This document shows positions 5,936 to 22,690 of a stretch of 64,000 bases of DNA, in pieces. A model generated the notes under the pieces. The model worked only from the letters and a program-made list of their open reading frames with translations, did no database searches and was not told where the DNA came from. The stretch spans positions 1,736,001 through 1,800,000 of the forward strand of contig JMMB01000007.1 in assembly GCA_000686145.1 (NCBI GenBank), in the 5' to 3' direction. This DNA is from Peptostreptococcaceae bacterium VA2. GTDB lineage: Bacteria > Bacillota > Clostridia > Peptostreptococcales > Peptostreptococcaceae. The number at the start of each line of letters is the position of its first letter. The stretch's first letter is position 1. A program made the position numbers and the translations under genes.

Positions 5936-6011
5936 GCTAGTGTGGCTCAATTGGCAGAGCAATTGCCTTGTAAGCAATAGGTTGTAGGTTCGATTCCTAT
6001 CACTAGCTCCA
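5936..6011 (+). tRNA. tRNA-Thr (anticodon TGT)
   Basis: A full 76-nt cloverleaf. The acceptor stem GCTAGTG pairs exactly with CACTAGC, the D arm is GCTC/GAGC, the anticodon stem ATTGC/GCAAT carries loop CTTGTAA with anticodon TGT (reads ACA), and the T arm is GTAGG TTCGATT CCTAT. CCA is encoded at 6009-6011. It lies 30 bases before the first late-operon gene. Either it is carried by the phage to help read its A-rich codons, or it marks an old attachment site. Confidence 0.95.
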
Positions 6012-6041: not shown

Positions 6042-6224
6042 ATGAACAGAGCAATAAAAGAACTAACTCTTCTAATTAAAGAAGAGATGCAGAAAGAAGA
6101 TATAACATTAAGAGAAGAAGATTTAGGTATTATTATATGTATTCTTTTAAGGGTTATAAGTGATGTAGAGGTATATGATATGATACTCTGCTTAGATACA
6201 GAAGACACAGAGAGTGAGGTATAA
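6042..6224 (+). CDS. Small hypothetical phage protein
   Basis: A 60-residue acidic protein starting at an ATG with GGAAAG upstream. The middle (LGIIICILLRVI) is hydrophobic, flanked by Glu/Lys-rich segments. It is the first gene after the tRNA and ends three bases before the next gene, so it is co-transcribed with the packaging genes. No family recognised. Confidence 0.6.
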   Translation: MNRAIKELTLLIKEEMQKEDITLREEDLGIIICILLRVISDVEVYDMILCLDTEDTESEV

Positions 6225-6227
6225 CTT

Positions 6228-6503
6228 ATGAGTAGTAATAACAAGACATGCTTCATACTGAATGAAGATGTGTATAGCTTCAGAGCTGTAGATGCAGATG
6301 TCTTTGCTAATGTATGTGAAGCATTAGACATTAGTATAGAAGAGCTTAGAGATGATTTAAATAGACAAGACTTAGTAGTTATTATTCATATGATGTACTA
6401 CTCTATAAGAGACAGAAAGAGCTTAGTGATAGAAGACTTATATAAGTTAGATGCAGAACATTTAGAATTGCTATTAGATTTATATATACAAGCTAATAAG
6501 TAG
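6228..6503 (+). CDS. Small acidic hypothetical phage protein
   Basis: A 91-residue protein, strongly acidic and helical, with the segment VCEALDISIEELRDDLNRQD. It lies between the 60-residue protein and the HNH nuclease, with almost no spacing. Its position just ahead of HNH and terminase genes fits a small regulator or packaging accessory, but there is no recognisable domain. Confidence 0.65.
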   Translation: MSSNNKTCFILNEDVYSFRAVDADVFANVCEALDISIEELRDDLNRQDLVVIIHMMYYSIRDRKSLVIEDLYKLDAEHLELLLDLYIQANK

Positions 6504-6512
6504 GTGATTATA

Positions 6513-6890
6513 ATGCCTAAGATACTATGTAAGCATTGTTTAAAAGTACACGAGAGAGAGTATGACTGTCATGCGAAGACTAATCATGAACGTAAGTATA
6601 AGATAGAATATAATAAACAATATGACAAATGCTATAACTCTAGAAAATGGAAAAGAGTAAGGACTGAAGTATTAAAAGATAATGATTACTGTTGTGAAGT
6701 ATGCAAGCAGTTAGGAATAGTAAATTATACAGATATACAAGTTCATCACATAACTAAGATAATTGATAACGATGAATTAATGTTTGATAAATCTAATTTG
6801 TTAGTTGTATGTAGAGAACATCATAGACAAATAGAAGGCATGAATTTAAATGAGGTTGTAAGCTATGTTGAAGAGTTGAAGAGTAAGTAA
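6513..6890 (+). CDS. HNH endonuclease next to terminase
   Basis: A 125-residue phage HNH nuclease. The start at ATG 6513 is preferred to the GTG at 6504 because AGGTGA lies at 6502-6507. An N-terminal CKHC and later CEVC give a likely structural zinc site. The HNH motif is visible as VHHI, followed by DKSNLLVVCREHHRQIEG. In HK97-like phages a nuclease of this kind sits beside the small terminase and assists DNA cleavage at cos during packaging. The position directly before the terminase supports that role. Confidence 0.9.
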   Translation: MPKILCKHCLKVHEREYDCHAKTNHERKYKIEYNKQYDKCYNSRKWKRVRTEVLKDNDYCCEVCKQLGIVNYTDIQVHHITKIIDNDELMFDKSNLLVVCREHHRQIEGMNLNEVVSYVEELKSK

Positions 6891-7017
6891 TGAGAGAAGG
6901 GGTATGGGCTTCTAACATTCGCTTCTAAGGGGGTTGAACAGACAAGGGGTGATTCGCTTACACAAAATTCCCACAGAGAGATTTTCAACCCCCATAACAA
7001 AGGTAGGTGAATAATAG
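6891..7017. other. Candidate cos / packaging region
   Basis: The 127 bases between the HNH and small terminase genes are clearly richer in G and C than the surroundings. They contain an exact 10-bp inverted repeat, GGGGGTTGAA (6929-6938) and TTCAACCCCC (6984-6993). A cos site next to HNH and terminase genes is usual in related phages. No cut site can be fixed from one sequence. Confidence 0.4.
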
Positions 7018-7503
7018 ATGGCTAAGAGCAAACCAGTTACGTTAGCAACTGGACATAGAACTAAAGAAGAAATACAACAAAGAAAAGAAAATGAAGAACG
7101 GCTAAAGTGCTCAACTGATAAAGTACATATTGCACCAAAGTGGCTATGTAAGGATGCAAAGAAAGAGTATAAGAAATTAATTGCAGAGTTAAAAGATTCT
7201 GAAATAATAACTAATATAGATATACCAGTTGTAGCCATAATTGCAGATGCTTATGTTAAGATGGCACAAGCAAACAATATACTTATAGAAGAAGGTATGT
7301 TTATAAAAAAAGTATCTGACAGAGGTTCAGAGAATATAGTTGAACATCCTGCTATGAAAGTATATAGACAATATAACACTATATACAAACAGTATTTAGT
7401 AGAGATAGGATTAAGTCCTTCATCAAGAGCTAAATTAAGTCTTATAAATACTAATGCTGAAGATGATAGAAATGACCCATTATTAGCTATATTAAACAAA
7501 TAA
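7018..7503 (+). CDS. Terminase small subunit, P27 family
   Basis: A 161-residue protein matching the P27-type small terminase: a basic start, then a helical region (APKWLCKDAKKEYKKLIAEL), a long central helix pair with AIIADAYVKMAQANNILIEEG, and a C-terminal segment ending SSRAKLSLINTN. It recognises the packaging site and hands DNA to the large subunit. It is separated by 46 bases from the large terminase gene and follows the HNH nuclease, the standard order for cos-type siphophages. Confidence 0.9.
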   Translation: MAKSKPVTLATGHRTKEEIQQRKENEERLKCSTDKVHIAPKWLCKDAKKEYKKLIAELKDSEIITNIDIPVVAIIADAYVKMAQANNILIEEGMFIKKVSDRGSENIVEHPAMKVYRQYNTIYKQYLVEIGLSPSSRAKLSLINTNAEDDRNDPLLAILNK

Positions 7504-7549
7504 AATACCTAGTAGGAATAAGTACTAAATAAAAATAGGAGGTAATTAT

Positions 7550-9253
7550 ATGAGTATTTATAAACATCCAGCATACAAATATGCTTTAGATGTAGTTAAT
7601 AATAATATAAAACTCAATAACACTTCTATAAAACAAGGAAAATACATTATTAAACAATGTAAAAAGTTTATAAATGATATAGAAAATAAAGAGTGCAAAT
7701 ATTTTATTGATGAAGATGAATTAGAAAGAATAACTAGTATAACAAAATTAATTAATATGGCAGATGGACTTAAGGCAGGTACACCAGTATATGAATCGTT
7801 GGTAGGTTTCCAATGGTTCTTTTTAATTAACATGCTTTGTTGGAAATATAAAGAGAATCATGAGAAGAGAAGATATGAAACTTCAGTATTATTAATAGCT
7901 AGAAAATCAGGTAAGTCCATGTTGATAGGGCTTATTTTTTTAATTCTAATGATAATAGAGCCGAAGTATTCTCAGTTCTTTTCAGTAGCTCCTGACAGAG
8001 AGTTATCTAAAATAGTTAAAGAAGAAGTAGCAAAATTATTAGAATCAAGTCCTGCATTAACTAAAAGATTCAAGATTAGAAATACGGATATACTTTGTAA
8101 TCTAACTAGCAATAAGTTTGTTCCATTAGCTAACTCAATTAACAGAATGGATGGTAGAAAAGCAAATGTTTTTGTTGCAGATGAGGTAGGTGCACTAAAA
8201 AATAGATATCCCATCTCAGCTATGAGGTCTTCTCAAATGAACATGTTAAATAGGACAGGAGTTCTGATATCAACAGCATATGAATCTCAAGTAAATCCAA
8301 TGGTTGAAGAGGTTGAGTATTGTGAAAAGGTATTAGATGGTCTTATAGAAGATGATACTGTGTTTGCTTTGCTATATAAGCCTGATGATACAGAAAATTG
8401 GACTAACGATTTAGCTCTATATCAAGCAAATCCTCTTGCTTTAGATGTCTCTGAAAATTTAGAAGAACTATTTAAGATGAGAAATAAAGCAATAGAAATG
8501 CCTTCTGAGACTACCAATTTTAAGACTAAACATCTTAATATATTTGTAAGTTGTAAAAAAGAAGATGTATTTATAGACATAAATGACTTAAAGAAATGTG
8601 AAATAGATACTTATGATTGGTCTAATAAAGACGTAGTATTATCATTTGATTTGGCTCTGAGTGGCGATAACACTGCTATTTCTATTCTTGCTTATGATTA
8701 TGATTTAGAGAAATATGTAGCTCAAAGTTGGGGATTTATTCCATCATCTAAAATTGAGGTTAAGACTCAGGAAGAGAAAGTACCTTACAATGAGTACATA
8801 AGAAGAGGATGGTGCTACGGCTGTGGCAACAAAGGAATTATAGACTATGGATTCATAGAAAATTTTATTATATCTATAGAAAATAAATTAGGTTGCAAAG
8901 TAAAAATGGTTGGCTATGACAAATATAATGCTTCAAGTACAGTATCAAAACTAGAGGATGCAGGACTTGAGTGTACAGAAGTAGCTCAAGGTTATATGAC
9001 ATTACACCCTGCATGTAAGCTAATGAAAGAATCAGTTTTAACTGAGAAATTTGCATATGTAAAGAATGATTTGTTCACTTTAAACGTTGCAAATGCAAGA
9101 GAGATTACAAACGCACAACAATTAACTATGGTTGCTAAAAAAGCGAGTAAAGGAAAGATAGACTTGCTAGCAAGCTTATTAAATGGGTTTGCATTAATAG
9201 AACAAATAGAAGAAACCTCGGTCTATGAGGATAGAGGAATATTTATTATATAA
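7550..9253 (+). CDS. Terminase large subunit
   Basis: A 567-residue packaging motor and nuclease of the Terminase_1 (YmfN-like) type. The ATPase half has an adenine-binding GFQ near residue 86, a Walker A-like ARKSGKSM at 117-124 and Walker B NVFVADEV at 206-213. The C-terminal RNase H-like nuclease begins near residue 364 with LSFDLALSGD, where the Asp is a likely metal ligand. An AGGAGG lies before the ATG. The protein looks complete and intact, so packaging function may be preserved even though the tail module is incomplete. Confidence 0.95.
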   Translation: MSIYKHPAYKYALDVVNNNIKLNNTSIKQGKYIIKQCKKFINDIENKECKYFIDEDELERITSITKLINMADGLKAGTPVYESLVGFQWFFLINMLCWKYKENHEKRRYETSVLLIARKSGKSMLIGLIFLILMIIEPKYSQFFSVAPDRELSKIVKEEVAKLLESSPALTKRFKIRNTDILCNLTSNKFVPLANSINRMDGRKANVFVADEVGALKNRYPISAMRSSQMNMLNRTGVLISTAYESQVNPMVEEVEYCEKVLDGLIEDDTVFALLYKPDDTENWTNDLALYQANPLALDVSENLEELFKMRNKAIEMPSETTNFKTKHLNIFVSCKKEDVFIDINDLKKCEIDTYDWSNKDVVLSFDLALSGDNTAISILAYDYDLEKYVAQSWGFIPSSKIEVKTQEEKVPYNEYIRRGWCYGCGNKGIIDYGFIENFIISIENKLGCKVKMVGYDKYNASSTVSKLEDAGLECTEVAQGYMTLHPACKLMKESVLTEKFAYVKNDLFTLNVANAREITNAQQLTMVAKKASKGKIDLLASLLNGFALIEQIEETSVYEDRGIFII

Positions 9254-9265
9254 GGAGGTGAATAA

Positions 9266-10534
9266 ATGGGATTATTAGGTGACTTTTTTAAACAAAGTAG
9301 TGTTAGTAGTGTTGATGTAGATTTAACTAATGGTACAGTAACTGAAACTGATGGAGTTAAATTTAGTAGCATTAAAGAAGCAGATGCTAAAAAGATAGTA
9401 GCCTTAAATTCAGGCATAAATTTGATAGGAAATTCTATTGCAACACTACCGATATATCTGTATAAAAGAGATAAAAACGGTGAAAGACTCAAAGTTAATG
9501 ATGATAGAAATTACTTACTCAATGCTAGTCCAAACAATACGACTACTGCTATGAACTTGAAGTACAACATAGTTAAAAACTTAATACTAAAAGGAAATGG
9601 ATACATTTATATTAAAAAAGATAATTTAGGTACTATAAAAAGACTAGAATATATTGATTACAATGATATGAATGTTGAAAAGATTAAATATAATGATGGT
9701 TCTATTGGTTATGAATATAAATTTAAAGATAATTCTGAAATGAATATTGTAGCACAACATTATGAAGTAATAAATTTAATTAAAGATAACAAGGATAGTG
9801 GAAGTTATGAAGGCACAGGCATATTAGAAACTGGTCAAGAATTAATAAATATTGCTAAAGAAGAAAGTAAATTCTCATTATCTAATTTGACTGGTGTAAA
9901 TATAAAAGGTTTTTTATATAGTGCTAGTAAGTTAAGTGAAACTGCAAAGAAAAATTTAAAGGAAAGTTGGAAAAAATTCTATACAGGTTCTGATAAAACT
10001 GCAACTCCACTATTAGAGGAGGGCTTAGAATTTAAACAACTCAATTTAAAGCCTGCCGAGATAGAATTAATAAAAAGCAAAGAATTTACAATTAAACAAA
10101 TAGCATCATTATTAAATATACCATTTAGTTATCTAGTTGACAGCTCAAGTAGTTACAATAATAGTCAAGAAGAAGCTTTAAGATTCTTAACTGTAACATT
10201 AAATCCTTACATAAGGTTGATTGAAGAAAACTTTAATAAGTATCTCTTAACAGAAGTTGAAAAACAACAAGGATATTTCTTTGAATTTAAAGCAGAAGAA
10301 TTATTAAGAATGACTGTTAAAGAGCAAATGGAATATCTTAAAACTGCTGTAAATAGTGGATTAATGACTCTTAATGAATCAAGAAAGAAACTTAACTTAC
10401 CATCTATCAAAGGTGGAGATATATTACAAATACCTTCAAATATGATGATACTTGAAGATGGAGTAATAAGATTAGTGTCTAATGAGAGCATTAATAATAA
10501 TTTAGTTAATAAAAATACAAAAGGTGGTGAATAA
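9266..10534 (+). CDS. Phage portal protein, HK97 family
   Basis: A 422-residue portal, the usual length for this family. It shows typical words: LNSGINLIGNSIATLPIYLYKR near the N-terminus, LLNASPNNTTTA, then a long middle region and NIPFSYLVDSSSSYNNSQEEALRFLT in the C-terminal part. The portal forms the dodecameric ring at one capsid vertex through which DNA enters. It begins 12 bases after the large terminase, with AGGAGG in the gap, and directly abuts the protease gene. Confidence 0.95.
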   Translation: MGLLGDFFKQSSVSSVDVDLTNGTVTETDGVKFSSIKEADAKKIVALNSGINLIGNSIATLPIYLYKRDKNGERLKVNDDRNYLLNASPNNTTTAMNLKYNIVKNLILKGNGYIYIKKDNLGTIKRLEYIDYNDMNVEKIKYNDGSIGYEYKFKDNSEMNIVAQHYEVINLIKDNKDSGSYEGTGILETGQELINIAKEESKFSLSNLTGVNIKGFLYSASKLSETAKKNLKESWKKFYTGSDKTATPLLEEGLEFKQLNLKPAEIELIKSKEFTIKQIASLLNIPFSYLVDSSSSYNNSQEEALRFLTVTLNPYIRLIEENFNKYLLTEVEKQQGYFFEFKAEELLRMTVKEQMEYLKTAVNSGLMTLNESRKKLNLPSIKGGDILQIPSNMMILEDGVIRLVSNESINNNLVNKNTKGGE

Positions 10535-11137
10535 ATGAATAAATTAGAGTTTAGAAATGAACTATCTATTGAACTTAGAGCTATAGATAATACCGAAAAT
10601 AAGATGATTATAGAAGGTATAGTTAATACTATAGGTCAAAAATCTAAAGTAATATTTGGTGAATTTCAAGAAATAATATCCAAAGGTGTATTTGAAAGAG
10701 CGATACAAAATAGTAAAGATAACAATAAAGATATATTTTTATTATTCAATCATAACTCAAACAATCTGATGGCTAGTATGAAGTCTGAAACTTTACAATT
10801 AGAAGAAAGAGAAGAAGGATTATGGATGAAAGCAGAACTTCCAAATACGCAACTTAATAAGGACTGCTATGAATTAATAAAGTCTAATATATTAAGAGAG
10901 TTTTCATTTGGATTCTATGGTGTAACTGATTCATGGTCATATGATGAAAATGATATGATGATAAGAACTATAACAGATTTAAATTTAGAAGAGATATCAT
11001 TAGTTTCTGTTGGTGCTTATAATAATACTCAAGTCCAAGCTAGAAGTATTGAATTAGCTGATATATTACCAACAAAAGAAGATAAAGTTAATATAGATTT
11101 TTATAATGCTAAAGTAAAACTATATAAATTAAAATAG
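10535..11137 (+). CDS. HK97-family prohead protease
   Basis: A 200-residue serine protease that processes the capsid precursor. The family's catalytic His is visible in LLFNHNSNN (about residue 71) and the Ser in REFSFGF (about residue 127). The N-terminal part IEGIVNTIGQKSKV ... FQEIISKGVFERAI is typical. The ATG follows immediately after the portal stop, indicating tight coupling. Its substrate should be the N-terminal delta-like domain of the capsid protein encoded next. Confidence 0.93.
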   Translation: MNKLEFRNELSIELRAIDNTENKMIIEGIVNTIGQKSKVIFGEFQEIISKGVFERAIQNSKDNNKDIFLLFNHNSNNLMASMKSETLQLEEREEGLWMKAELPNTQLNKDCYELIKSNILREFSFGFYGVTDSWSYDENDMMIRTITDLNLEEISLVSVGAYNNTQVQARSIELADILPTKEDKVNIDFYNAKVKLYKLK

Positions 11138-11183
11138 AAAGCACTCAATTTAGAGTGTTATTTTTGTGCTTAAAATTAAACGG

Positions 11184-11203
11184 TGTAGATGGTCGAGTCT
11201 ACA
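11184..11203 (+). promoter_or_regulatory. Stem-loop before the major capsid gene
   Basis: TGTAGA (11184-11189) pairs with TCTACA (11198-11203), enclosing the loop TGGTCGAG. AAGAGGT at 11210-11216 is the ribosome site of the capsid gene. The same loop and surrounding bases recur at 14293-14312 with a different but still paired stem. Just upstream, CACTC/GAGTG at 11142-11157 followed by TTATTTTT may be a weak terminator. Confidence 0.6.
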
Positions 11204-11221
11204 AAATATAAGAGGTAAAAG

Positions 11222-12349
11222 ATGAAAATAAAACAATTAAAAGAGAAAAGAAATTCGATAATATTAGAAATGCAAAAAATGACTACAGAAGAAAGAGGAT
11301 TTGATGCTAAATTATTTTCTACTAAAGAGTCTGAAATAGAAGAAATAGATGTTGAAATAAGAGCATTAGAAAAGGTTCAAAAATTAGTTAAAGTTGAAAG
11401 TAAAATCGAAGAAAGAAAAGGTGAAGATAATATGGAATTAAGAAAAGATTTAATGGATGGTAAAGAAGTTAAATTAGAAGAAAGAGCAATAACTAATGGT
11501 ACTGATACTGTAGTTGGAAAAGATTTAATACAAACTGATTATGCTTCAGAAATATTTAAAGGCATGGAATACATATCTCCTTTATTTGCTCAAGTTAGAA
11601 AAATAATAACTTCAAGTCCTCACAACATACCAGTTGCAAAAGGTAAATTAGGTAAGTTTGTAAAAACTGCTGAATTAGCAGATTATACTGCTCAAAAATC
11701 TAACTTCGCAACTGTTCAATTAGGTGCTGAAAAATACACTAATTTAGTAGTTTTATCAGAAGAAGTGTTAAATGACAATGATTATAATTTAGAAAAAGAA
11801 ATGCAAGACCAATTAACAGAATCATTTGCATTTACTATGGATGAATTAATAGTTAAAGGTGATGGTGCATTAGCAGAAGGATTAAATTCATTTGTTGATA
11901 ATAAAGTTGCTCAAGCAGTAGCAGGTACTATAACTACAGATGAAATAATAGACGTATTCTTTAAATTACCAATACAATATAGACAGATGGCTACTTGGAT
12001 ATTAAATGATGATACTGCTAAAGCATTAACTAAATTAAGAGATGGTCAAGAAAGACCATTATTAGTTGAATCATTTAATAATGATGCGTTTGGTTCTACT
12101 TACACATTAATGGGTAGACCAGTTATAATAAACAACTATGTTGATAAATTAGATGGTGGTGCTGGTAAGAAATCTATATTCCTTGCTAACTTAGAACAAG
12201 CAATGGTAGTTGGATTAAGAAAGAATTTAACTATACAAAAAGATACTTCTGCATTATTCTTACAAGATGGTGTAGCTATAAAAGCTAATGCTAGACTTGA
12301 CTCTAAGAAATTAAATGAGTCTGCTGTTTCTTTCTTAGAATGTAAATAA
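11222..12349 (+). CDS. Major capsid protein, HK97 family
   Basis: A 375-residue capsid precursor. Residues 1 to about 75 are Lys/Glu-rich helix, the scaffolding delta domain that the protease should remove. After that comes the HK97 fold, with recognisable words QTDYASEIFKGMEYISPLFAQV, ILNDDTAKALTKLRD and GRPVIINNYVDKL. An internal ATG (MELRKDLMDG, about residue 71) lies close to the expected cleavage region. The gene is preceded by a distinctive stem-loop and followed by a 13-bp hairpin, a setting that fits separate high-level expression of this gene. Confidence 0.95.
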   Translation: MKIKQLKEKRNSIILEMQKMTTEERGFDAKLFSTKESEIEEIDVEIRALEKVQKLVKVESKIEERKGEDNMELRKDLMDGKEVKLEERAITNGTDTVVGKDLIQTDYASEIFKGMEYISPLFAQVRKIITSSPHNIPVAKGKLGKFVKTAELADYTAQKSNFATVQLGAEKYTNLVVLSEEVLNDNDYNLEKEMQDQLTESFAFTMDELIVKGDGALAEGLNSFVDNKVAQAVAGTITTDEIIDVFFKLPIQYRQMATWILNDDTAKALTKLRDGQERPLLVESFNNDAFGSTYTLMGRPVIINNYVDKLDGGAGKKSIFLANLEQAMVVGLRKNLTIQKDTSALFLQDGVAIKANARLDSKKLNESAVSFLECK

Positions 12350-12360
12350 TTTTAAAATAT

Positions 12361-12393
12361 ATATAGTGGATAATACTAATTTATCCACTATAT
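12361..12393 (+). terminator. 13-bp hairpin after the capsid gene
   Basis: Arms 12361-12373 and 12381-12393 are exact reverse complements around TACTAAT. No strong T-run follows, so it may slow decay of the capsid message or only partly terminate transcription, lowering expression of the connector genes behind it. Confidence 0.65.
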
Positions 12394-12415
12394 TAACTAT
12401 TAAAGGGGTGATTCA

Positions 12416-12595
12416 GTGAGTTTGAAAAAGGTAATAGTATTAAAAAGTTTTGTTGATGTTAATAGAGGCTCATTTATAAAAAATCAACACATAGAAATAG
12501 AAGAAGATATAGCCAACATATGGATAGAAGGCAATTTAGTATGTGAAAATACTGTTAAAAAGAAAAAGGTAAAAAAACAAGAAGAAAATAATTAG
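12416..12595 (+). CDS. Small phage protein, GTG start
   Basis: A 59-residue protein too short for most gene callers' defaults. It starts at GTG with AAAGGGGTGA just upstream. Sequence begins MSLKKVIVLKSFVDVNRG and ends in a Lys-rich tail (VKKKKVKKQEENN). Small proteins of this form between capsid and connector genes are frequent in siphophages and may be head decoration or Rho-like/DUF-type proteins. The function is not established here. Confidence 0.65.
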   Translation: MSLKKVIVLKSFVDVNRGSFIKNQHIEIEEDIANIWIEGNLVCENTVKKKKVKKQEENN

Positions 12596-12623
12596 TTGTA
12601 ATACTAAATGAGGTGAGATTATA

Positions 12624-12887
12624 TTGGATGAATTTGTTGATTCAATCGTAATAAAAATTATACAAAGTTTTTCGCATTCTACACTTGGTAATTTTGTAGA
12701 AGGTAAAATATACGAAGTTCCTAAAAGTTATGGCGATAAAATTTGTGATGGTGGTTTAGCAGAAGAATATATAGTTCCTAATATTCAACCTACTAAGATA
12801 AATAAAGACATTAAAGAGTTATTACCTAATTCATTGATTAATGAAATTCAGAGGTCTAAAGATACATCTGAATATTTTGATAAATAG
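12624..12887 (+). CDS. Small phage head-region protein, TTG start
   Basis: An 87-residue protein. The TTG at 12624 is chosen because GAGGTGAG lies 7 bases before it; the ATG at 12628 is in another frame. The segment GNFVEGKIYEVPKSYGDKICDGGLAEEYI resembles the preceding 59-residue protein in layout (a short beta-rich domain with an Asp/Gly turn), hinting at an old duplication. No confident family. Confidence 0.6.
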   Translation: MDEFVDSIVIKIIQSFSHSTLGNFVEGKIYEVPKSYGDKICDGGLAEEYIVPNIQPTKINKDIKELLPNSLINEIQRSKDTSEYFDK

Positions 12888-12899
12888 GAGGATATTAAC

Positions 12900-13187
12900 A
12901 TGGATGATTTAAATTTTAGTTCTTTAAGTGTTAATGAGTGCAAAAAACATCTTAATATAGAAGATGATTTTAAAGATGATGATGATTTTATAAAAATATG
13001 TTTGAAATCTGCTAAACGACATATACAAGATTATACTTCTTTAACTATTGAAGAACTAGATAAAATACCTTCTATTAATATTGCATTATTAATGTTGACA
13101 TCAGATTTCTATGATTGTAGAAGTACTGATAAGAAATTAAGTTTTGCACTTAAATCTATACTTGATATGAATAGGTTGTGGTTATAA
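12900..13187 (+). CDS. Head-tail connector, gp6-like
   Basis: A 95-residue helical protein of the kind that forms the adaptor ring under the portal (HK97 gp6/YqbG-like). Recognisable features are the start SVNECKKHLNIEDDFKDDDDFI, a helix with LKSAKRHIQDYTSLT, and a C-terminal helix with LLMLTSDFYD. AGGAGG lies before the ATG. Its stop overlaps the next start (TAATG), so the two are translated together. Confidence 0.85.
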   Translation: MDDLNFSSLSVNECKKHLNIEDDFKDDDDFIKICLKSAKRHIQDYTSLTIEELDKIPSINIALLMLTSDFYDCRSTDKKLSFALKSILDMNRLWL

Positions 13188-13501
13188 TGTTGGATGCTAG
13201 TGAATTAAGAGAGCCAATATCTATACAATCAGTAAAAGAAGTTGTAAATGATATGGGAGGAACTGAATATCAACATATTACAATATGTACTCCTAGAGCA
13301 AAAGTTAAATATATGTCTACAAAAGAGTATATAACATCAAATTCAGAAACTGTAAAATATGTTGTAAAGTTTATAATAAGAGTTAGAAAAGTATCTAATG
13401 ACGATATAGTAACATTTAAAAATGAACAATACAGTATAAAGCATGTTTTCCCATTTGAAGATAGAACATTTATGGAACTAACTTGTGAAAGGATAGTGTA
13501 A
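13187..13501 (+). CDS. Head closure / head-tail adaptor protein
   Basis: A 104-residue beta-rich protein of the SPP1 gp16 / phage head-tail joining type. It begins MLDASELREPISIQSVKEVVNDMGG, the usual opening of this family (a request for strand geometry RI.IQ.....D..G), and contains CTPRAKVKYMSTKEYI. The ATG at 13187 overlaps the stop of the connector gene; the GTG at 13178 is less likely. It seals the neck after DNA packaging. Confidence 0.85.
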   Translation: MLDASELREPISIQSVKEVVNDMGGTEYQHITICTPRAKVKYMSTKEYITSNSETVKYVVKFIIRVRKVSNDDIVTFKNEQYSIKHVFPFEDRTFMELTCERIV

Positions 13502-13503
13502 AC

Positions 13504-13881
13504 ATGGCATTAACATTTGATACATCTAAAGTATTGGAAGCATTAGAGAAATTAGAAAAAAAAGCAAAAGGTGATATGTCTAAAAATGCACTAAATAAAG
13601 GTGCTGATATTATGAAATCTACAATTAAAGGTAATGTACCAATTGATACTGGTAGACTACAGGAAGCTATAGACAAAAGCAATGCAAAAGGTGGAGTTAA
13701 TCCAAAAATAAAAGTTGGTTTAATTGATGCAGATGCAGACGTTATTAGATATGGAAATGCACAAAACTTTGGAACTGAATCCATGATTGGGAAAAAGTTC
13801 ATGGAAAGAAGTTTTGTTGAAAGTAAAGATGAAGCAATAGAAGCAATAAAACAATCAATAGTGCAAGATTTATCACAATAA
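13504..13881 (+). CDS. HK97 gp10-like neck/tail completion protein
   Basis: A 125-residue protein of the HK97-gp10 family. It shows a helical N-terminus (LEALEKLEKKAKGDMSKNALNKGADIMKSTIKG), then the diagnostic PIDTGRLQEAI, and a C-terminal AQNFGTESMIGKKFMERSF. It helps join tail to head. The gene starts two bases after the head closure gene, in the standard order for siphophages. Confidence 0.9.
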   Translation: MALTFDTSKVLEALEKLEKKAKGDMSKNALNKGADIMKSTIKGNVPIDTGRLQEAIDKSNAKGGVNPKIKVGLIDADADVIRYGNAQNFGTESMIGKKFMERSFVESKDEAIEAIKQSIVQDLSQ

Positions 13882-13896
13882 TAAGAAGGTGATAGT

Positions 13897-14220
13897 ATTA
13901 ATAAGAAATTAATGAGTATATTCAAAGGTTTAGGTATCAATTCTTATTATCAAGAATGTACAAATAAGAGTGATAATTATGTTATTTTTAGTATTTATAA
14001 GGAACAAGATACCGAAATAGCAGATAATATTAGTAATTCAACTTTGTACTATGTGACGATAAATTATTGGTATGATAAATCTTGTAAACACTTAGATAAA
14101 TACAAGATAATAAAAGAAGCAATGAAATCAAATGGATTCAAATATGATGGATGTACTGACTTAGTTGGTACAACTCATTTTTGCAAGAACATTGATTTTA
14201 TATATAAAGAATGGAACTAG
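13897..14220 (+). CDS. Putative tail terminator protein
   Basis: A short protein in the tail-terminator position between the gp10-like protein and the major tail protein. From the ATG at 13912 it is 102 residues. An ATT at 13897 (INKKLMSIFKGLGI) is better spaced from AGAAGGTGAT and may be the true start, giving 107 residues. It contains YVTINYWYDKSCKHLDKYKIIKEAMKSNGFKYDG. Position and size, rather than a clear motif, support the call. A terminator follows at once. Confidence 0.65.
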   Translation: MNKKLMSIFKGLGINSYYQECTNKSDNYVIFSIYKEQDTEIADNISNSTLYYVTINYWYDKSCKHLDKYKIIKEAMKSNGFKYDGCTDLVGTTHFCKNIDFIYKEWN

Positions 14221-14244
14221 AACTATATAAGTAGTTCTTTTTTT
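14219..14244 (+). terminator. Rho-independent terminator inside the late operon
   Basis: AGAACTA (14219-14225) pairs with TAGTTCT (14232-14238) and is followed by TTTTTT. It starts within the stop codon region of the preceding gene and separates the connector genes from the major tail genes, so the tail genes may have their own promoter. Confidence 0.8.
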
Positions 14245-14292
14245 AATACTCAAAAACCCTATAAAGGTTAACAAAACAAACAAATTAAATGG

Positions 14293-14312
14293 TGCTAATG
14301 GTCGAGTTAGCA
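14293..14312 (+). promoter_or_regulatory. Stem-loop before the major tail gene
   Basis: TGCTAA (14293-14298) pairs with TTAGCA (14307-14312) around the loop TGGTCGAG. Compared with the copy before the capsid gene (11184-11203), three stem positions changed on both sides so that pairing is kept, while the loop, the flanking AAATTAAA, CAAAATA and AAGAGGTAAAA are conserved. Confidence 0.6.
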
Positions 14313-14331
14313 AAATAAAGAGGTAAAATTT

Positions 14332-14943
14332 ATGGCTGGTACATATAAAGAGAAAATAGTTTACGGATTAAATGAAATACATGTTGCAAAAGTTGCAGAT
14401 GATGGTACTTTTGGAGCTCCAGTTGCTATACTTGGAGCTAAAACAGTTGAAGCAACATTTGAATCATCTGAAAAGAAAATATATGCAGACAACAACACAG
14501 TTTATGTAGATAAGAGAGTTTCTTCAGGTAAAGGTAAATTAGGAGTTTTAGGATTAACAATGACAGAAAAAGCTTTATTAGCTGGTGGAGAAAACATGTC
14601 AGGTGGATTTGCATTAAATAAAAATACAAACGCTCCTAACTTAGCTTTATTATTCTCACAAGATAAAGCCGATGGAGGTAAAATATTAACTGTTGTTTAT
14701 AATTCTCAATTCTCAATTCCTGGTATAAATGCAGTAACTACTGAAGAAGAAATGGAAGAACAAATAGCAGAAATAGAATTTACATGTTCACCTGAATTAG
14801 CAGAAGGATACTACTATTATTCTGTTGATACTAAAGATGCTAATATAGACCAAACTATGGTTGATGCTTGGTTTACTAAGGTTCAAATGCCTAAGAAAAC
14901 TTCCGTTCCAACTGGTGCTCAAGCTACAAAAATAAGTAAATAG
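14332..14943 (+). CDS. Major tail protein, phi13-like
   Basis: A 203-residue tail-tube protein. Typical words of this family are YGLNEIHVAKV near the start, KIYADNNTVYVDKRVSSGKGKLGVLGLT, ALLFSQDKADGGKILTVVYNSQFS and YYYYSVDTKDANIDQTMVDAWFTKVQMPK at the end. Many copies stack to form the tube whose length is set by the tape measure. It follows its own stem-loop and AAGAGGT ribosome site. The next gene encodes a clear paralogue. Confidence 0.92.
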   Translation: MAGTYKEKIVYGLNEIHVAKVADDGTFGAPVAILGAKTVEATFESSEKKIYADNNTVYVDKRVSSGKGKLGVLGLTMTEKALLAGGENMSGGFALNKNTNAPNLALLFSQDKADGGKILTVVYNSQFSIPGINAVTTEEEMEEQIAEIEFTCSPELAEGYYYYSVDTKDANIDQTMVDAWFTKVQMPKKTSVPTGAQATKISK

Positions 14944-15011
14944 TTTTCAATAAGAGTTTGATAGGTTCTCTCAAAACCTATCACCAATAAAATTAAAATG
15001 TAAAGTAGGTG

Positions 15012-15566
15012 ATGAAAATTAATTATGAAAATAAAATTCTCTTTGGATTAGATAAGATACATTATTGCAAGGATGGAGTTATAAAACCATTGAGTGGAGC
15101 TTTAGATATAGAAATAAACTTAGAACAACAATATCAATACGGGAAGAGACAAGGATTTGATGCAATAAGATTTAATAGTGCTATAACTGGGAAAGGGCAA
15201 TTAACCTTACTTGGATTAACTTTAGAAGAGGAAGCAGATTTATTAGGGTGTGAGTATAGAGATGGGGAATTATATGTATCTGATGTATATAGCCCAAAAC
15301 CTGTTAGCTTACTATTTGCTAGACAAAAGGTAGATGGAAGTGAATTATACACGGTAGCTTATAAGTGCATATTTAAAAATCCTAGTAATAGTGCCCATAC
15401 AACTCAAGGGGAAATGGACAATAGCACTCAAGTATTAGAATTTGATGTACTTGTTGATTTAGATAAGAGATTAACTTACTTTACACTAGATACAAAACGA
15501 GGTAACAAAAATAAGGTAGATAGTTTTTTTAAGGAATTACAGATACCTAACAAGGTGGTAAAATAA
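15012..15566 (+). CDS. Second, paralogous tail-tube protein
   Basis: A 184-residue protein from ATG 15012 (GTG 15009 is less likely). It aligns by eye with the preceding major tail protein throughout: FGLDKIHYCKDG, GKGQLTLLGLTLEEEADLLG, SLLFARQKVDGSELYTVAYKCIF and YFTLDTKRGNKNKVDSFFKELQIPNK. This is a tandem duplication that has diverged strongly. It may be a minor tube protein or an adaptor at one tail end. No stem-loop precedes this copy, so it is probably made in smaller amounts. Confidence 0.85.
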   Translation: MKINYENKILFGLDKIHYCKDGVIKPLSGALDIEINLEQQYQYGKRQGFDAIRFNSAITGKGQLTLLGLTLEEEADLLGCEYRDGELYVSDVYSPKPVSLLFARQKVDGSELYTVAYKCIFKNPSNSAHTTQGEMDNSTQVLEFDVLVDLDKRLTYFTLDTKRGNKNKVDSFFKELQIPNKVVK

Positions 15567-16103
15567 ATGATAAATGATATTATAGAAATTAAAATAAATG
15601 ATGTTGCATATAGTGCAAGATTAGACATGGGAGCAATAGCAGAATGTCAACATAAATTACAAAAGTTAAAAAAGAATATCGGTGTAGTTGAAATGTTAGA
15701 CCAAGTTAAAGAAGAAAATTATTTAGTTGTAAATAACATAATAATAGAATCAATAAAAAGATGTCATCCAACTTTAAAAGATGAAAACATACTTGAAAAT
15801 ATGAAGTTACATGATAAAAATAGAATAGTGGCTTATGTATTTGAATTGATGTCTGCAAGTTTACCTTCTACAGATGATGATAAAAAAAAAACAAGTGGAG
15901 TAGTTAATCCGTATAAGAAAGTTCAAGACTGGGATTTTAGCGAAATGGAATATATTTATTATTCTGTATTAAAAAGAAATAATGATTTTTGGAGCATTAC
16001 CCCTAAATATTTCTTTAAACAATGGGATGCTCATAAAAGATTTAATGGTTTAGATAAACAAGATAGTAATAGAGAAGTAGTTAACGGAACAGAATGTGGT
16101 TAA
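15567..16103 (+). CDS. Tail assembly chaperone (fused G-T type)
   Basis: A 178-residue protein between the tail tube and tape measure genes, the position of the tail assembly chaperones. The N-terminal part (to about residue 105) looks like gpG; the C-terminal part (DFSEMEYIYYSVLKRNNDFWSITPKYFFKQWDAHKRF) looks like the T extension. Here both lie in one frame, joined at a run of ten A at 15882-15891. A slip there in either direction meets a stop within about six codons, which would produce a short, G-only form. The ATG follows directly after the previous stop. Confidence 0.75.
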   Translation: MINDIIEIKINDVAYSARLDMGAIAECQHKLQKLKKNIGVVEMLDQVKEENYLVVNNIIIESIKRCHPTLKDENILENMKLHDKNRIVAYVFELMSASLPSTDDDKKKTSGVVNPYKKVQDWDFSEMEYIYYSVLKRNNDFWSITPKYFFKQWDAHKRFNGLDKQDSNREVVNGTECG

Positions 16104-16187
16104 AAAATAAATAGTAACTAACTTAGGGAGTAGCCAAAATTGGTTATTCCCTATTTTTTTACTTAAATTATAGGTGGTGGTTTATAA

Positions 16188-19100
16188 ATGGCGACAAAAG
16201 GCGAAATTGCAGAATTAAGTATTGGGATTGGGTTAAATGATTCAAAATTTAGTAGTCAAGTTTCTAACATAAATAAACAGATAAAGAACATGGATAGAGA
16301 TTTAAAGAGTGCTAGTAATGGTGTTAAGGGATTTGAAAATTCATTCGTTGGATTAAATTCTAAAGTTCAAAACTCTGCTAATCAAATTGAATTATATAAC
16401 AAGAAATTAGATTCACAGAAAAAAGAATATGACAGATTAAATGGAACATTAGATAGACAAAGAAATAAACTTACAGAATTAGAAACTAGTTTAGGCAGAA
16501 CATCTAAAGAATATAAACAACAAGAACAATTAATACAAAAGACTGCTAGTAAAATGACAACTTTAGATAGTCAGATAACACAAACTAATTCACATTTAAC
16601 TAGATTAGGTACAGAATTAAATGATGCTACTAGAGACATGGAAAAGATGGCTAATAAAACTCTAACAATAGAGCAAAGATTAGCAAGTGTAGGACAACGA
16701 GCAGATTTAGCAAATAGTCAATTTGATAGACTGGGAGCAGAATTAGCTGGAACTGGTAATTTTATGAACCGTCTTGGTAACGATATGCAAAGACTATCAA
16801 ATGAAATACAACAAGGTGGAGCAAAAATTGCAATATATGAAGCCGAGTTAAATAAATTAGGTGGAGAATTACAACAAAATAGTGTAAGACAGTTAGAGTT
16901 AGCAACTTCAATACAACAAGTAGAAGAAGAGTTAATGCAAGTTAGTGCTATCTATGGTAATACAAGTCAAGAAGCACAACAGTTGTCTAATAAATTATTA
17001 GGACTTAAAGATGATTTTAATAGAAATGAACATGAGATTGAACAGAATACTCAAGCATTAAATAGATATCAAACAGAATTAAATCAAACTGAAGCAAGTG
17101 TTATTAGAGCAGGAAATTCTTTAAGAACAATGCCATTTGATAGAGTTGGTAACTCACTTAAAAATGTTGGTAATGGAATTAGAAGTGCTGGTTATTCTTT
17201 ATTACCTTTAACGTATGGTATAGGTGCAGTTGGTGCAGGCTCTGCTAAAGTTGCATTAGATTTAGAAAGTGCATTTGCTGGTGTAAGAAAAACTATGGAT
17301 ACAAGTGGTTTAAGTGCAGAACAAGCAGATAAGAAATTTGAAGGCTTAAAATCAAGCATAATGGAAATGTCTAAACGTATGCCTACATCGGCAGTAGAGA
17401 TAGCTAAAGTAGCAGAAAATGCTGGACAGTTAGGAATTAAGAGTGAGAATGTATTAGGATTTACTGAAACTATGGTTAAGTTAGGTGATACTACTAATTT
17501 AAGTGCAGATGAAGCATCTAGTGCATTAGCAAAGTTGGCGAACATAACTGGTATGCCACAAGAAAACTTTGATAGACTTGGCTCAACTATAGTCGCACTT
17601 GGTAACAACATGGCTACAACAGAAGCAGACATTTCTGCTATGGCGTTAAGATTAGCAGGTGCAGGTAGTCAAGTTGGTATGAGTGAAGATGAAATATTAT
17701 CATTCTCTTCTGCGTTATCAAGTGTTGGTATAGAAGCCGAAGCAGGTGGTTCTGCATTCTCAAAAGTTATGATAGACATGCAACTAGCTACTGAAACTGG
17801 TGGTGAAAAATTAGAAAACTTTGCTAAAGTAGCTGGTATGAGTTCTAGTGAATTTAGTAAAGCGTTTAAAGAAGATGCTCCTACTGCTATTATGGCATTC
17901 ATAGAAGGATTAGGTAAAGCAGAAGAAAACGGACAGAGTGCTATCGGAATACTTGATAGTATGGGTATTTCAGAAGTTAGATTAAGAGATACATTACTTA
18001 GAGCAAGTGGTGCATCTGATTTATTTAGTAAAGCATTAGGAATAGGAAGTAAAGCGTGGAGTGAAAACAATGCTTTAACTAAAGAAGCACAGGTAAGATA
18101 TGAAACTACTGCATCTAAAATAGCTATGGCTAAAAATAGATTAATAGAGACTGGTCAGAAAATAGGTCAAATACTTTTACCTGTTATAGCAGATGTTATG
18201 GATAAAATAGCAAGCTTAGGTGAGAAATTTAGTGGATTAGATGAATCACAACAAAAGACTATAGTTAAATTAGCAGGCGTTGCGATGGCAATTGCACCAG
18301 TTTTAATTGGACTAGGTTCAATAATGAATTTAGCTGGAACAGCAACTACTGCATTCGGTGCATTAGCTGGTGGTACTAGTGTATTAAGTGGTATATTTGC
18401 TACTTTTGCATTACCAGTAGCATTATTAGGATTAGCAGGTACGATAGGTGAATCTGAAACTGCTTTAGACTTTTTACAAGATAAATTCGGTGTTGTAGGA
18501 AGTGTGATAGGTGGAGTATGTGAAGGTATAGCAGGTCAATTTCAATTAACATTTGGTAATTTATTAATTTTAGTTGGTGGAGTAGCTAAAGGTATAAGTG
18601 CTATTTTCAGTGGTGAATTTTGGAAAGTAGACGATATAATGTCTGAAACTTGGGCTAGTGTAGAAAATAATACTGCTAAAGCTTTGTCTAATACACGCAT
18701 GGAATCAAGTAGAGCATTAGATTTATTAGAGAATACGACAAAAGAAAAATTAACTGGTGTTAAAAGTGCATTTGATATGGCTCTTAAAGAGTTACCTAAT
18801 GTTACTGAAAAAAATTTAAGCCAAGTTTCGAAAAAATTTGCAGACAATTTTAGTAAATTAGACAATGATTCATTAACAATATTAAGAGGTACTTCTGATA
18901 CTATGGCTATGTTATTCGAAGGTATATATGAAGGTATGTCTAAAGATGATGCTTCTAAAAAGTTTAATGCCAACTTAGAAAGTATGAATAAAGGTGGAAA
19001 GTTAGACGGTGTTAAAGAAGATGTAGCTAAAGCTATGGATTTAATCAATAGAAATGTTTCAGATGGTTCTACACAAGTAAAACAAAGTGCTAGTGATATG

Positions 19101-22100
19101 TTTAATAGTATTAAAGATTCTAGTAAAATAGGGATGGATGAAGCCGTTTCTAATGTAGTAGGGCAACTTGGAAGTATGAATCAAGAAACTCTAACTCAAT
19201 TAACTTCTATGGGTTCAACTTGGAAATCTGTATTTAATGGAATAAATTTAGATGGTTCTATGAGTACTCAACAAATGAAAGATACAGTTATGAATAATAT
19301 GTCTACATTAGAAAAGAACGGTGTAGATGTTATAAGTATGCTTAGAAATGAAAGTGCTACCCATTGGAAAGGCATGGAAACAGATGCTAATACTAGTACT
19401 GCTAATATAACTCAATCATTTGATAAGATACCAAAAGAGGTTGTAACTCAATTAAAAAGTAATGGTATAGAATCTGAATCTGAAATTCTAAAAGTATATA
19501 ATCTATACGAGCAATTACCAAAAGAAATTCAGACTTATATTAAAGCAGATAATTACCAAGCATTAGTCGGAGCAACTAGCATTAAAGATGTATTAGCTAA
19601 TATTCCAGTTGAAAAAAGAGTAGCTTTAATAACTGATGTTGCAACAAAAGGCAACATGCCACCAAAAGAATTAGAAGAGCTACTTAAATCACTTCCTAAT
19701 GAAGAAAGAGTTAGAGTTGAAGCCGAAATAAATAACGGCGATAAAGTAAAAGACGTAAAGAAAGATGTTGAAGATGTACCTAAACAAACTAAAGCTAAAG
19801 TTGATGTAGATACTGGTAATAGCAAAGAGAAAGTTAAAGAGGTAACTAAAGAATTAGCATCATCTAACGGTAAGAGTTCTAAATCTAAGGTTGCTGTAGA
19901 TACTGGAAATAGTAAACAAAAGGTTCAAGAAGTAAATAAAGAGGTTAAGAATGCTAACGGTAAGAGTTCTAAATCTAAAATATCAGTAGAGACTGCACAA
20001 GCCAGTAAGAACGTAACTGGATTAAAAAGTAATATGTCTGACTATGACAGGAAACATGGTAATAAGACTAAGAAAACAAACTTTACTGCTAATACTGCTG
20101 GTGCTAGTAAGAACGTAACTGGATTAAAAAATAATATAAGTAGTTTTGTAAGTAGATTTGTTAGAACATTTACAACGACTTTTAAAGTAGTTACAAAGTA
20201 CAGCACACAAGGTAGCCCAACACCTGCTAGTGCTGGTAAAAGAGTAACTGGTGCTGGTAATGTATCTAAGTTAAATTCTGCTCCTATAAAAAGAAAAGCA
20301 CCTATTCCAGTAAATATTAATCCAATTAAAACACCAATGACAACGGGAGCAACTACAACTCCAATGGCTACTGGTGATTCTACAACTCCAGTTCAAACTC
20401 CAATGACTACTGGAGCAACTACAAGTCAAGCAATGGACTCTAATTTAGCAATGTGGAGCTCTGACATAAATAATGCTTTTAAATATGACGTTAACTTATT
20501 AAGAGAGTTGGATATTGTAATACAAAAAGTAAATAATCAACTTTCTATAACTGATAAGAAAATGGATAATGCTATTGGAAATGAAAAGATTAAATACTTA
20601 GAAGAACAAAACAAGTTATTCAGAGAACAATTAGAGTTACAGAAAAACTTAGAGAATAAACTAACAAGGATGTTATCTGTTTATAAAAAATTTTTAAGTA
20701 ATGAAGGATTCCAATTTAATCAAGATGGTAATTTAATTAACTATGAAGAAAAATTAATTGCTATGGAAAAAGAGTCAGAACTATTAGAACAAATTGCAGA
20801 GAATAAACAGAAAGCATCTAACGATTACAAAGGCGATGATGAAGGTCATAAGAATTGGTTATCTAATATCTACGAGGAAGCTAAAAATAAATCTGATAAA
20901 TATAATGAATCGCTAGCTAGTACTAAAAAGTATCTAGAAGAATATATAAAAGTAGCTTTTACTGACTTACCAAAAGTACAAGATGAATTTCTTAATATAA
21001 ATAAATCTATATTAGATAATAAAAAGGCAATTGAAGATTCTAATAAAGCAATAGAGGATGCTAGAAAAGAAGCAATCTTATTAAAAGATGAATTAAGAAA
21101 ACTAAGTTTTGATGCTATGTGGACTTCTATGGATAAGCAAGTTAAACAATATAACAATGAACTAAGTAAAACAAATTCTTTAATGGAAAATGCGTTCGGT
21201 TCTGATAAAGAGAGACTAATACAGAATAAAATAGACCTTTATGATAAACAAATAGCACAATTCCAAAAGATGCAAAATTATGCTAAGAATGAAATGAATA
21301 ATACTAAAGGATTATTACAAGAATTTGGTTTTAATTTTAGAGAAAACGGAGATATTGTTAACTATGATTCACAGATAGTTAAACTTAAAGAACAAAATAA
21401 AGAGTACGAAAGAGCTGAAAAATTAATTTCTGAATATCTTGATTTGTTAATAAATAAAATACCTGAATATGAAGGTAATATAATAGAAGTTAATAATCAG
21501 ATTAAAGCTTCTTATAAAGACCAACTTAACGTAATTAATTCAATAGAAGATAAAATTACATCTGTTTATAAAAAACAACTAGACGATAGAAAAAAATTAA
21601 TTGACGAAGAACTTGATGCTAAATTAAAAGCATTTGATAAAGAAAAAGAAGCTTACAATGATTCAAGAAAAGAAGCAGATTATAAAAATGACTTAAAAGA
21701 GCAACAAGATGCTGTATCAAAGTTACAAAGTAAAATAGATATTGCAACTAGAGACAGTTCTTTAACTGGTCAGAAGAAGTTACAAGAATTATTGCTTCAA
21801 ATGAAGGAAGAACAGAATAAACTTCAAGATATGGTTCAAAGTAATATAGATGAATCAGTTAATAAAATGTATGACAATGAAAAAAATAGATTATCAGATA
21901 CTACAGAGCAATCTATTAAAGATTTAGAAAATAAATGGTCTGCTTCTAACATTGCAGATATGGTTAAAAATGCTTTAGGCAATAACACTTTTACTGATAT
22001 AGATGGAAATGTTACTAGTTTAAAAGATACTATGATTGACTTCTTAAACGAGAGTGGTGAAGCATTTGGAGTATTAGGTGGTATAATTCAAAATGACTTA

Positions 22101-22388: not shown

Positions 22389-22411
22389 TAAATGAAAGGT
22401 AAATAGCAAAA

Positions 22412-22639
22412 ATGAATGAATTTTTTCAAATGATATTAAGTGAGTATGGCTTTGTAGGAGCTATATTCACTTGTTTACTATTCTATGTAATGACAGAAAA
22501 TAGTAAAAGAGAATTAAGGTATCAAGATACTATATCTAAGAATCAAGATGTAATTTTAGAACAAGCTAAGAGTTTTGAGATTGTAAAAGTTATGAAGGAT
22601 GATATAGATGATTTAAAAGATATTATATTAAGTAAGTAG
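22412..22639 (+). CDS. BhlA/UviB-type holin-like peptide
   Basis: A 75-residue protein with one membrane span near residues 13-29 (GFVGAIFTCLLFYVMTENSK) and then a charged helical tail ending MKDDIDDLKDIILSK. This is the layout of the BhlA/UviB family of clostridial and bacillary holin-like or bacteriocin-associated peptides. It directly follows the tape measure gene and closes the late operon. No endolysin is present beside it, which is unusual. Confidence 0.8.
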   Translation: MNEFFQMILSEYGFVGAIFTCLLFYVMTENSKRELRYQDTISKNQDVILEQAKSFEIVKVMKDDIDDLKDIILSK

Positions 22640-22642
22640 TAT

Positions 22643-22690
22643 AAAGGGCTATAGGTGTGCATTTATTTGTATATCTATAGCCCTTTTTCT
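22643..22690 (+). terminator. Strong terminator ending the late operon
   Basis: AAAGGGCTATAG (22643-22654) pairs exactly with CTATAGCCCTTT (22675-22686), followed by a T-run and CT. It lies just past the stop of the holin-like gene at 22639. Confidence 0.9.

What the first reader, a model, noticed from the sequence alone, without database searches (positions are those of the whole stretch)
11184..14312. Covarying stem-loops before the capsid and tail-tube genes
Stem-loops at 11184-11203 and 14293-14312 share an identical 8-nt loop (TGGTCGAG) and nearly identical flanks (AAATTAAA before, CAAAATA and AAGAGGTAAAA after), while three of six stem pairs differ with both sides changed so pairing holds. 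Both end about 20 bases before the start codons of the two proteins needed in greatest amounts, the major capsid and the major tail protein. The tail-tube paralogue and the other late genes lack it. That suggests a selected RNA or DNA element: a translation booster, a landing site for a phage regulator, an RNA-protection hairpin or part of a late promoter. I know of no named element with this loop.
Basis: partly seen in the sequence, partly recalled or inferred. Interest (0 to 1): 0.72.

Follow-up and report, generated by a model that had tools for sequence, protein, structure and literature searches.

The report
Shared RNA hairpin before phage virion genes
A small RNA hairpin with a constant loop and a changing but always paired stem sits just before the capsid and tail-tube genes of a small group of clostridial prophages, probably as a handle by which some protein adjusts the output of the two main virion proteins.

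Summary
Hairpins at 11184-11203 and 14293-14312 precede the major capsid and major tail genes. Relatives carry the same element before homologues of these genes. In 8 phage copies plus one on a plasmid-like contig (7 different stems), 54 of 54 stem pairs form, and 5 of 6 pairs change on both sides somewhere. The constant part is a 6-nt loop GGUCGN closed by U.G or C-G, with fixed flanks, followed by the ribosome-binding site. G.U pairs on the message strand (12 of 54) say that RNA, not a DNA palindrome, is kept. No Rfam match. Each phage copy lies 23-53 nt after a terminator-like stem. The element follows its gene through module swaps; homologues at 56% identity or less lack it. One unnamed protein family, X, is in 6 of 6 hairpin-bearing elements with early region (5 independent) and in 5 of 393 genomes of the order. 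Best reading: a 5'-leader recognition hairpin bound by a trans-acting factor (X or a host protein) that sets translation or stability of both messages. Binding, direction and X's role are inferred.

The parts
11172..11214 (+). capsid copy of the element (flanks, hairpin, ribosome-binding site)
   Evidence: covariance model R1, 60.8 bits, E 3.4e-10; R1 was built with this copy
11184..11203 (+). capsid hairpin, stem TGTAGAT/GTCTACA, loop GGTCGA
14281..14323 (+). tail-tube copy of the element
   Evidence: covariance model R1, 55.4 bits, E 5.2e-9; R1 was built with this copy
14293..14312 (+). tail hairpin, stem TGCTAAT/GTTAGCA, loop GGTCGA
11140..11165 (+). terminator-like stem with T run just before the capsid element
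14219..14244 (+). terminator-like stem with T run before the tail element
   Evidence: looser rule; not reported by the scan
11222..12349 (+). major capsid gene
   Evidence: phrog_10 E 5.6e-61, PF05065 E 1.8e-44
12361..12393 (+). 13-bp hairpin right after the capsid stop codon, without a T run on this strand
   Evidence: -15.4 kcal/mol
14332..14943 (+). major tail (tube) gene
   Evidence: phrog_88 E 1.3e-39
15009..15566 (+). tail-tube paralogue, lacks the element
   Evidence: phrog_88 E 2.7e-18; no model hit

Best explanation
It is a cis-acting RNA hairpin in the 5' leader of the capsid and tail-tube messages of the late operon. The stem only has to pair; the loop GGUCGN with its closing pair and the GGU/AAA-T flanks are read by a trans-acting RNA-binding factor, so that two messages answer to one signal. 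The hairpin sits just downstream of a terminator-like stem, at the head of a message segment, and leaves the ribosome-binding site open; I infer that the bound factor raises or times translation and/or stability of the two messages needed in bulk. The factor is inferred to be the element-encoded family X or a host protein. Shown: conserved RNA structure, position, gene-linked inheritance, co-occurrence with X. Inferred: binding, identity of the factor, direction of the effect.
For: 54 of 54 stem cells pair in 9 copies with 7 different stems; 12 are G.U on the message strand. In the 8 phage copies 5 of 7 pairs have two-sided changes; covariation score 0.714 against 0.309 (sd 0.061) in shuffles and at most 0.179 when slid. 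GGTCG and the G after N are invariant while the stem varies. Model hits separate: 11 with E 7e-5 or better, next 0.17, in 540 kb. Ribosome-binding site unpaired in 7 of 8 folds. Elements with a capsid of another branch keep the tail copy (G029, G031b, G395) and one with a divergent tail gene keeps the capsid copy (G031a), so neither protein alone is a likely binder. Apart from the integrase, X is the only family in 6 of 6 hairpin-bearing elements with early region and in neither of 2 hairpin-free relatives (genome-wide for those two). A phage protein that binds stem-loops in translation initiation regions and raises translation of abiD1 is on record (Orf1 of bIL66, PMC2661086; abstract, outline and one section read).
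Against: No expression, binding or 5'-end data. About six independent elements from two genera. X may co-occur only because the elements share a lineage; hairpin-free G051 has a fragment of a distant X, and G030, whose plasmid-like contig carries a copy, has no detectable X. X has no clear family (best hit phrog_1740 sigma factor, E 0.02) and a low-confidence model. The hairpin is weak on its own (z -0.2 to -2.7). In the Orf1 precedent a section heading says that binding alone does not account for activation.
Confidence: 0.45

Rival explanations
1. Selective RNA processing and stabilisation without a special factor: the late transcript is cut or terminated between terminator-like stem and hairpin, and the 5' hairpin plus a 3' hairpin protect the capsid and tail segments so that they outlast the rest.
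For: Terminator-like stem before all 8 phage copies (loose rule, no shuffle control); a 13-bp hairpin follows the capsid stop codon, and strong hairpins lie after or before one or more of capsid, tail and tape-measure genes in G029, G031a and G031b (partial gene lists). The cip-cel operon of Ruminiclostridium works so (PMC10311766; abstract, outline and one section read).
Against: Does not explain an invariant GGUCG loop and fixed flanks over varying stems. The upstream stem is also present in 10 of 11 hairpin-free homologues that I picked, so it is used without the hairpin.
Confidence: 0.25
2. Part of a late promoter: family X is a divergent sigma factor and the conserved block is its promoter with the first transcribed bases.
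For: X aligns colinearly over 179 columns with 17 rows taken from sigma-domain loci of the own genome, P 0.0048, against P 0.42 over 14 columns for reversed rows; phrog_1740 sigma factor E 0.02, 2 of 9 members at E 10 or better; conserved A/T-rich 5' flank.
Against: A promoter does not explain two-sided compensatory changes. The hhalign probability is 7%, one of the 17 rows was a spurious 30-residue ORF, and PF04542 does not detect X in G000 at E 1 or better. No copies before other late genes.
Confidence: 0.15
3. Target of a small or antisense RNA that pairs with the loop.
For: A short invariant loop on a variable stem is what a loop-loop target looks like (inference).
Against: No such RNA was searched for; the last loop base and the closing pair vary.
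Confidence: 0.07
4. A short leader peptide starting at the ATGGT flank (MVxxGRxxKxK).
For: In 6 of 8 phage copies the ATG is in frame with GGT CGN, and the variable loop base is a synonymous third position.
Against: No ribosome-binding site is seen before it (by eye); frame differs in the window tail copy, no ATG in the window capsid and plasmid-like copies; arm changes alter residues but keep pairing.
Confidence: 0.04
5. A DNA-level palindrome (protein or recombination site).
For: Inverted repeat.
Against: The arms vary; 12 of 54 pairs would be A.C on the other strand.
Confidence: 0.03

Closest known systems
Orf1-binding stem-loops of Lactococcus phage bIL66 and abiD1 (PMC2661086)
   Same: Hairpin in the translation initiation region of a phage operon and of an abortive infection gene, bound by a phage protein; translation of abiD1 is raised.
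   Different: There the abiD1 structure sequesters the ribosome-binding site and no conserved sequence was found; here the site is open, loop and flanks are invariant, and the genes are capsid and tail. Binding is not shown here.
Intergenic stem-loops of the cip-cel operon, Ruminiclostridium cellulolyticum (PMC10311766)
   Same: Stem-loops between genes of one operon, one acting as an internal terminator, set unequal amounts of products.
   Different: No shared loop sequence is described in what I read; here the same loop is used twice.
Coat-protein operator hairpins of RNA phages (MS2 type; recalled, from no call)
   Same: Small hairpin with a specific loop near a start codon.
   Different: RNA phage, another loop, coat protein as binder; here neither capsid nor tail protein alone is a likely binder.
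Mu-gpT-DE RNA motif (recalled, from no call)
   Same: Structured RNA beside a phage capsid gene.
   Different: Lies downstream (recalled); no Rfam match to the element here.

Membership tests
Any described Rfam RNA family | score above a family's gathering threshold | tested here: not met
   window: only a tRNA at 5936-6008; permissive scan of 11100-11260 gave two minus-strand matches at E 2.7 and 7.3, far below threshold; four homologous loci gave none at E 1
Selective RNA processing and stabilisation stem-loops (cip-cel type) | stem-loops at both ends of an abundant operon segment | tested here: met
   terminator-like stem and hairpin before, hairpin after the capsid gene; abundance itself not measured
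Selective RNA processing and stabilisation stem-loops (cip-cel type) | endonucleolytic cleavage at the stem-loops and longer half-life of the segment | not testable with these tools
   needs 5'-end mapping and RNA decay assays
Phage-protein-bound leader hairpin (Orf1/abiD1 type) | hairpin in the translation initiation region | tested here: met
   start codon 24-28 nt after the loop in 9 copies
Phage-protein-bound leader hairpin (Orf1/abiD1 type) | specific binding by a phage protein | not testable with these tools
   only co-occurrence with X
Ribosome-binding-site sequestering switch | ribosome-binding site paired in the structure | tested here: not met
   unpaired in 7 of 8 minimum-energy folds; L067 is the exception
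Intrinsic terminator | stem followed by a U run | tested here: not met
   the hairpin is followed by A-rich sequence and the ribosome-binding site; the separate upstream stem has the T run
Sigma-70 factors (for protein X) | match to the Sigma70 region 2 profile or fold | tested here: inconclusive
   PF04542 does not detect it; hhalign P 0.0048, probability 7%; structure comparison weak

The most novel reading that the evidence does not exclude
The hairpin is the operator of an RNA-level late regulon: one element-encoded protein (X, a family that no library used here names) reads the GGUCGN hairpin and switches on capsid and tail-tube translation together, and a plasmid has copied this hairpin in front of its own gene (G030:C47, L172:7847-8530, minus strand) so that the gene is switched on when such a phage becomes active: a stolen phage operator used as an alarm.
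Probability: 0.12. Interest if true: 0.85.

Novelty: new member of a known kind. Interest (0 to 1): 0.58.

Why it matters
A DNA phage needs many copies of capsid and tail-tube protein but few of their operon neighbours; how that is arranged in such phages is often not known (established background, recalled). Here the same covarying hairpin marks exactly those two genes and stays with each gene through module exchange, with a short list of candidate partners. That makes the question testable with two reporters and one protein. The copy before a gene of a plasmid-like contig would, if used, be a phage-sensing leader.

Tried and rejected
Rejected or put low: DNA palindrome; leader peptide; ribosome-binding-site sequestration; control by the capsid or the tail protein alone; kinship with the TGGTCGAG repeated many times in the own genome in what I recognise from recall as 23S rRNA, which has no flanking stem. 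Pattern scans: one search gave 32 stretches, of which only L017 and L028 had a stem of more than 2 pairs at the pattern. A viral pattern with a wrong spacer gave six stretches, all unrelated by eye. The corrected patterns (15 stretches, 91: 6 stretches) gave the known records and otherwise unrelated hits, judged by eye. The one genome-contig scan gave 12 loci: 3 true copies in two contigs and 9 from unrelated bacteria that I judged chance by eye and dropped. The model search of 71 family genomes at E 1 or better rang in 29; 5 have strong copies, I looked at 5 of the other 24 best matches (L129-L133: no GGTCG loop) and dropped the other 19 unseen. DNA searches of annotated phages and plasmids at E 10 gave 78 and 22 records, the listed ones at E 2-8 and 0.1-4; I did not inspect them further.

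Protein X: first structure model mean pLDDT 35.8, second 58.9, fair only from about residue 300 on. Foldseek found nothing at E 0.001 or better in PDB or viral models; the second look reached Z 4.6 at most, with several winged-helix-like matches for residues 397-482 and one chain of an RNA polymerase complex (8dy9 chain F, Z 3.5) for 71-179: not usable as proof. Profile search of PDB sequences: none (A6), three at E 0.06-0.52 (A8). Pfam, NCBIfam and PHROGs gave nothing solid. X has no match in the phage collection (one member) or the plasmid collection (another member). The 227-aa protein of the plasmid-like contig has no Pfam, PHROG or PADLOC match and neither it nor its leader region matches the plasmid collection.

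Literature searches listed no paper whose title or abstract start describes this hairpin; the library lacks most subscription journals, so this is weak evidence of absence.
Full report
OBSERVATION. Both have the segment TGGTCGAG; it occurs three times in the window against 0.12 expected, the third (30008) lying inside an ORF without a stem. Of the six stem pairs three differ between the two copies, each on both sides. The following genes are the major capsid gene and the major tail gene. Rfam has no match to the element.

RELATIVES. Viral contigs and genomes gave the same element before homologues of these two genes. Phage copies used: window capsid, window tail, and copies in L064 (G395, tail), L065 and L067 (G396, tail and capsid), L076 (G029, tail), L075 (G031b, tail) and L068 (G031a, capsid). 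All eight differ in sequence, but the window capsid and G029 copies share the stem arms, and so do the G396 and G031a capsid copies; with the plasmid-like copy there are 7 different stems in 9 copies. G002 repeats the window's hairpins, and the viral records G393 (L028), G394 (L017) and G397 (L068) repeat the window, G029 and G031a elements, so they are not independent. In 393 genomes of the order the model R1 finds copies in 5 at E 0.02 or better (G000, G002, G029, G030, G031, strict filters). In the 30 stretches, 11 copies have E 7e-5 or better and the next match has 0.17. R1 was built from the eight phage copies, so these match by construction; the plasmid-like copy does not.

STRUCTURE. 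On the alignment of 8 copies, 56 of 56 cells of a 7-pair helix are standard pairs, 5 of 7 pairs show two-sided changes, and the covariation score is 0.714 against 0.309 (sd 0.061) in 500 shuffles, none reaching it; slid versions reach at most 0.179. The tool's caveats apply: the structure was read from these sequences and they are related. With the plasmid-like copy, 54 of 54 cells of the six inner pairs form, 42 Watson-Crick and 12 G.U; 7 of the 12 are the innermost pair. On the complementary strand the 12 would be A.C, so the message strand is what folds. Invariant in the phage copies are the GGT before the stem, GGTCG and the G two places on, and AAA and a T after the stem. The innermost pair is U.G in 6 and C-G in 2 of the 8, so the loop is GGUCGN. 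Folding alone is modest (-4.6 to -7.7 kcal/mol, z -0.2 to -2.7), which fits a recognition hairpin better than a barrier. The ribosome-binding site is unpaired in 7 of 8 minimum-energy folds; in L067 it falls in a weak second helix.

CONTEXT. Each of the 8 phage copies lies 23-27 nt (53 in the window tail copy) after a terminator-like stem with a T run (loose rule, no shuffle control; the stricter scan reports the capsid one only). The same rule finds such a stem in 10 of 11 hairpin-free homologues that I picked, so it is more general than the hairpin. In the window a 13-bp hairpin follows the capsid stop codon and a strong terminator-like hairpin precedes the tape-measure gene; three other elements show some comparable hairpins (partial gene lists). 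This fits a late operon cut into segments of different abundance, as described for the cip-cel operon (PMC10311766).

INHERITANCE. Capsid homologues at 57% identity or more have the hairpin: 3 of 3 genomes and 3 of 3 viral records. Tail homologues at 66% or more: 4 of 4 genomes and 4 of 4 viral records; genomes and records overlap. Tail homologues at 56% (G007, G009) and the more distant ones lack it by motif scan and model. The copies follow the gene, not the genome: G029, G031b and G395 have the tail copy beside a capsid gene that the window capsid does not match and that has no copy; G031a has the capsid copy, and its tail gene, 42% identical, has none. Hence a factor made of the capsid or the tail protein alone is unlikely.

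A COPY OUTSIDE VIRION GENES. G030:C47, a 9.3-kb contig that looks like a plasmid (resolvase-like and initiator-like ORFs by eye), carries a copy (36.4 bits; E 7e-5, 4.5e-4 per genome) with an 8-bp stem, the GGTCGA loop and similar flanks, its loop 24 nt before the ATG of a 227-aa ORF of no known family. Over 464 overlapping genome scans an E of 4.5e-4 is not proof by itself; the likeness to the G029 tail copy and the place before a start codon speak for it. That genome has no detectable X.

CANDIDATE PARTNER. I clustered the ORFs of 45 aa or more from seven hairpin-bearing elements and two hairpin-free relatives. Apart from virion genes, three families are in all six hairpin-bearing elements whose early region is available: the integrase, an HNH gene that is also in both hairpin-free relatives, and X (375-538 aa, one or two copies). 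Five of the six are independent. X sits beside the integrase in the window's element, G002 and G031b and next to the tape-measure gene in G029, G031a and G396, so plain synteny does not explain it. Four of five hairpin-bearing viral records have it; the fifth, G395, starts near the terminase and is a fragment. X is in 5 of 393 genomes of the order (G000, G002, G028, G029, G031), four of which have the phage hairpin. In G028 it is broken into two reading frames, and none of nine window proteins matched the 40 kb fetched around it. G051, hairpin-free, has a fragment of a distant relative at a contig end. X resembles sigma factors weakly and its C-terminal part is modelled with fair confidence; I treat its function as unknown.

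MECHANISM. I take the hairpin as a recognition site on the 5' leader of two messages. A variable stem with a constant loop means that loop and flanks are read by something; the same loop before two different genes means that it acts in trans. The place at the head of a segment suggests control of translation or stability. [quoted passage not shown] abstract, outline and section 20 read). Which factor acts here, and whether it raises or restrains synthesis, cannot be told from sequence.

VERDICT. Real, selected, RNA-level, narrow in distribution and not in Rfam: a new RNA family of a known general kind. The most novel reading, a phage RNA operator that a plasmid has borrowed as an alarm, is not excluded but rests on one copy and a co-occurrence.

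Noticed in passing
window 6042-22639; also G029, G031, G395, G396: After the tape-measure gene these elements have no tail-tip, receptor-binding or lysis cluster that I could recognise by eye (only a BhlA-type holin at 22412-22639 in the window); they may be satellites or defective.
   Followed up: partly
window 23275-23574 and 5320-5363: Imperfect 44-53 nt repeats, several with their own inverted repeat around a short CTC/CTG loop, one inside the antirepressor-like ORF 5197-5427: perhaps a second set of hairpins with like flanks and differing stems.
   Followed up: no
L172 (G030:C47) 7847-8530: Plasmid-like contig whose 227-aa ORF bears a copy of the phage hairpin; a distant relative of the protein lies near phage genes in G051:C24.
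   Followed up: partly
L208:15122-16642 and 17088-18344: Unnamed protein family X, in 5 of 393 genomes of the order, weakly sigma-factor-like.
   Followed up: partly
L243:5667-7949, G395 21869-24160, G031a 351645-353930: A ~760-aa protein with small ORFs before it lies towards one end of several of these elements (conjugation-like by eye, no Pfam match for the L243 copy).
   Followed up: no
L065:5959-6003: In this copy the ATGGT flank opens a frame that runs through the hairpin into the tail gene, a possible N-terminal extension.
   Followed up: no
window 5936-6008: A tRNA gene lies just upstream of the packaging genes, inside the element.
   Followed up: no
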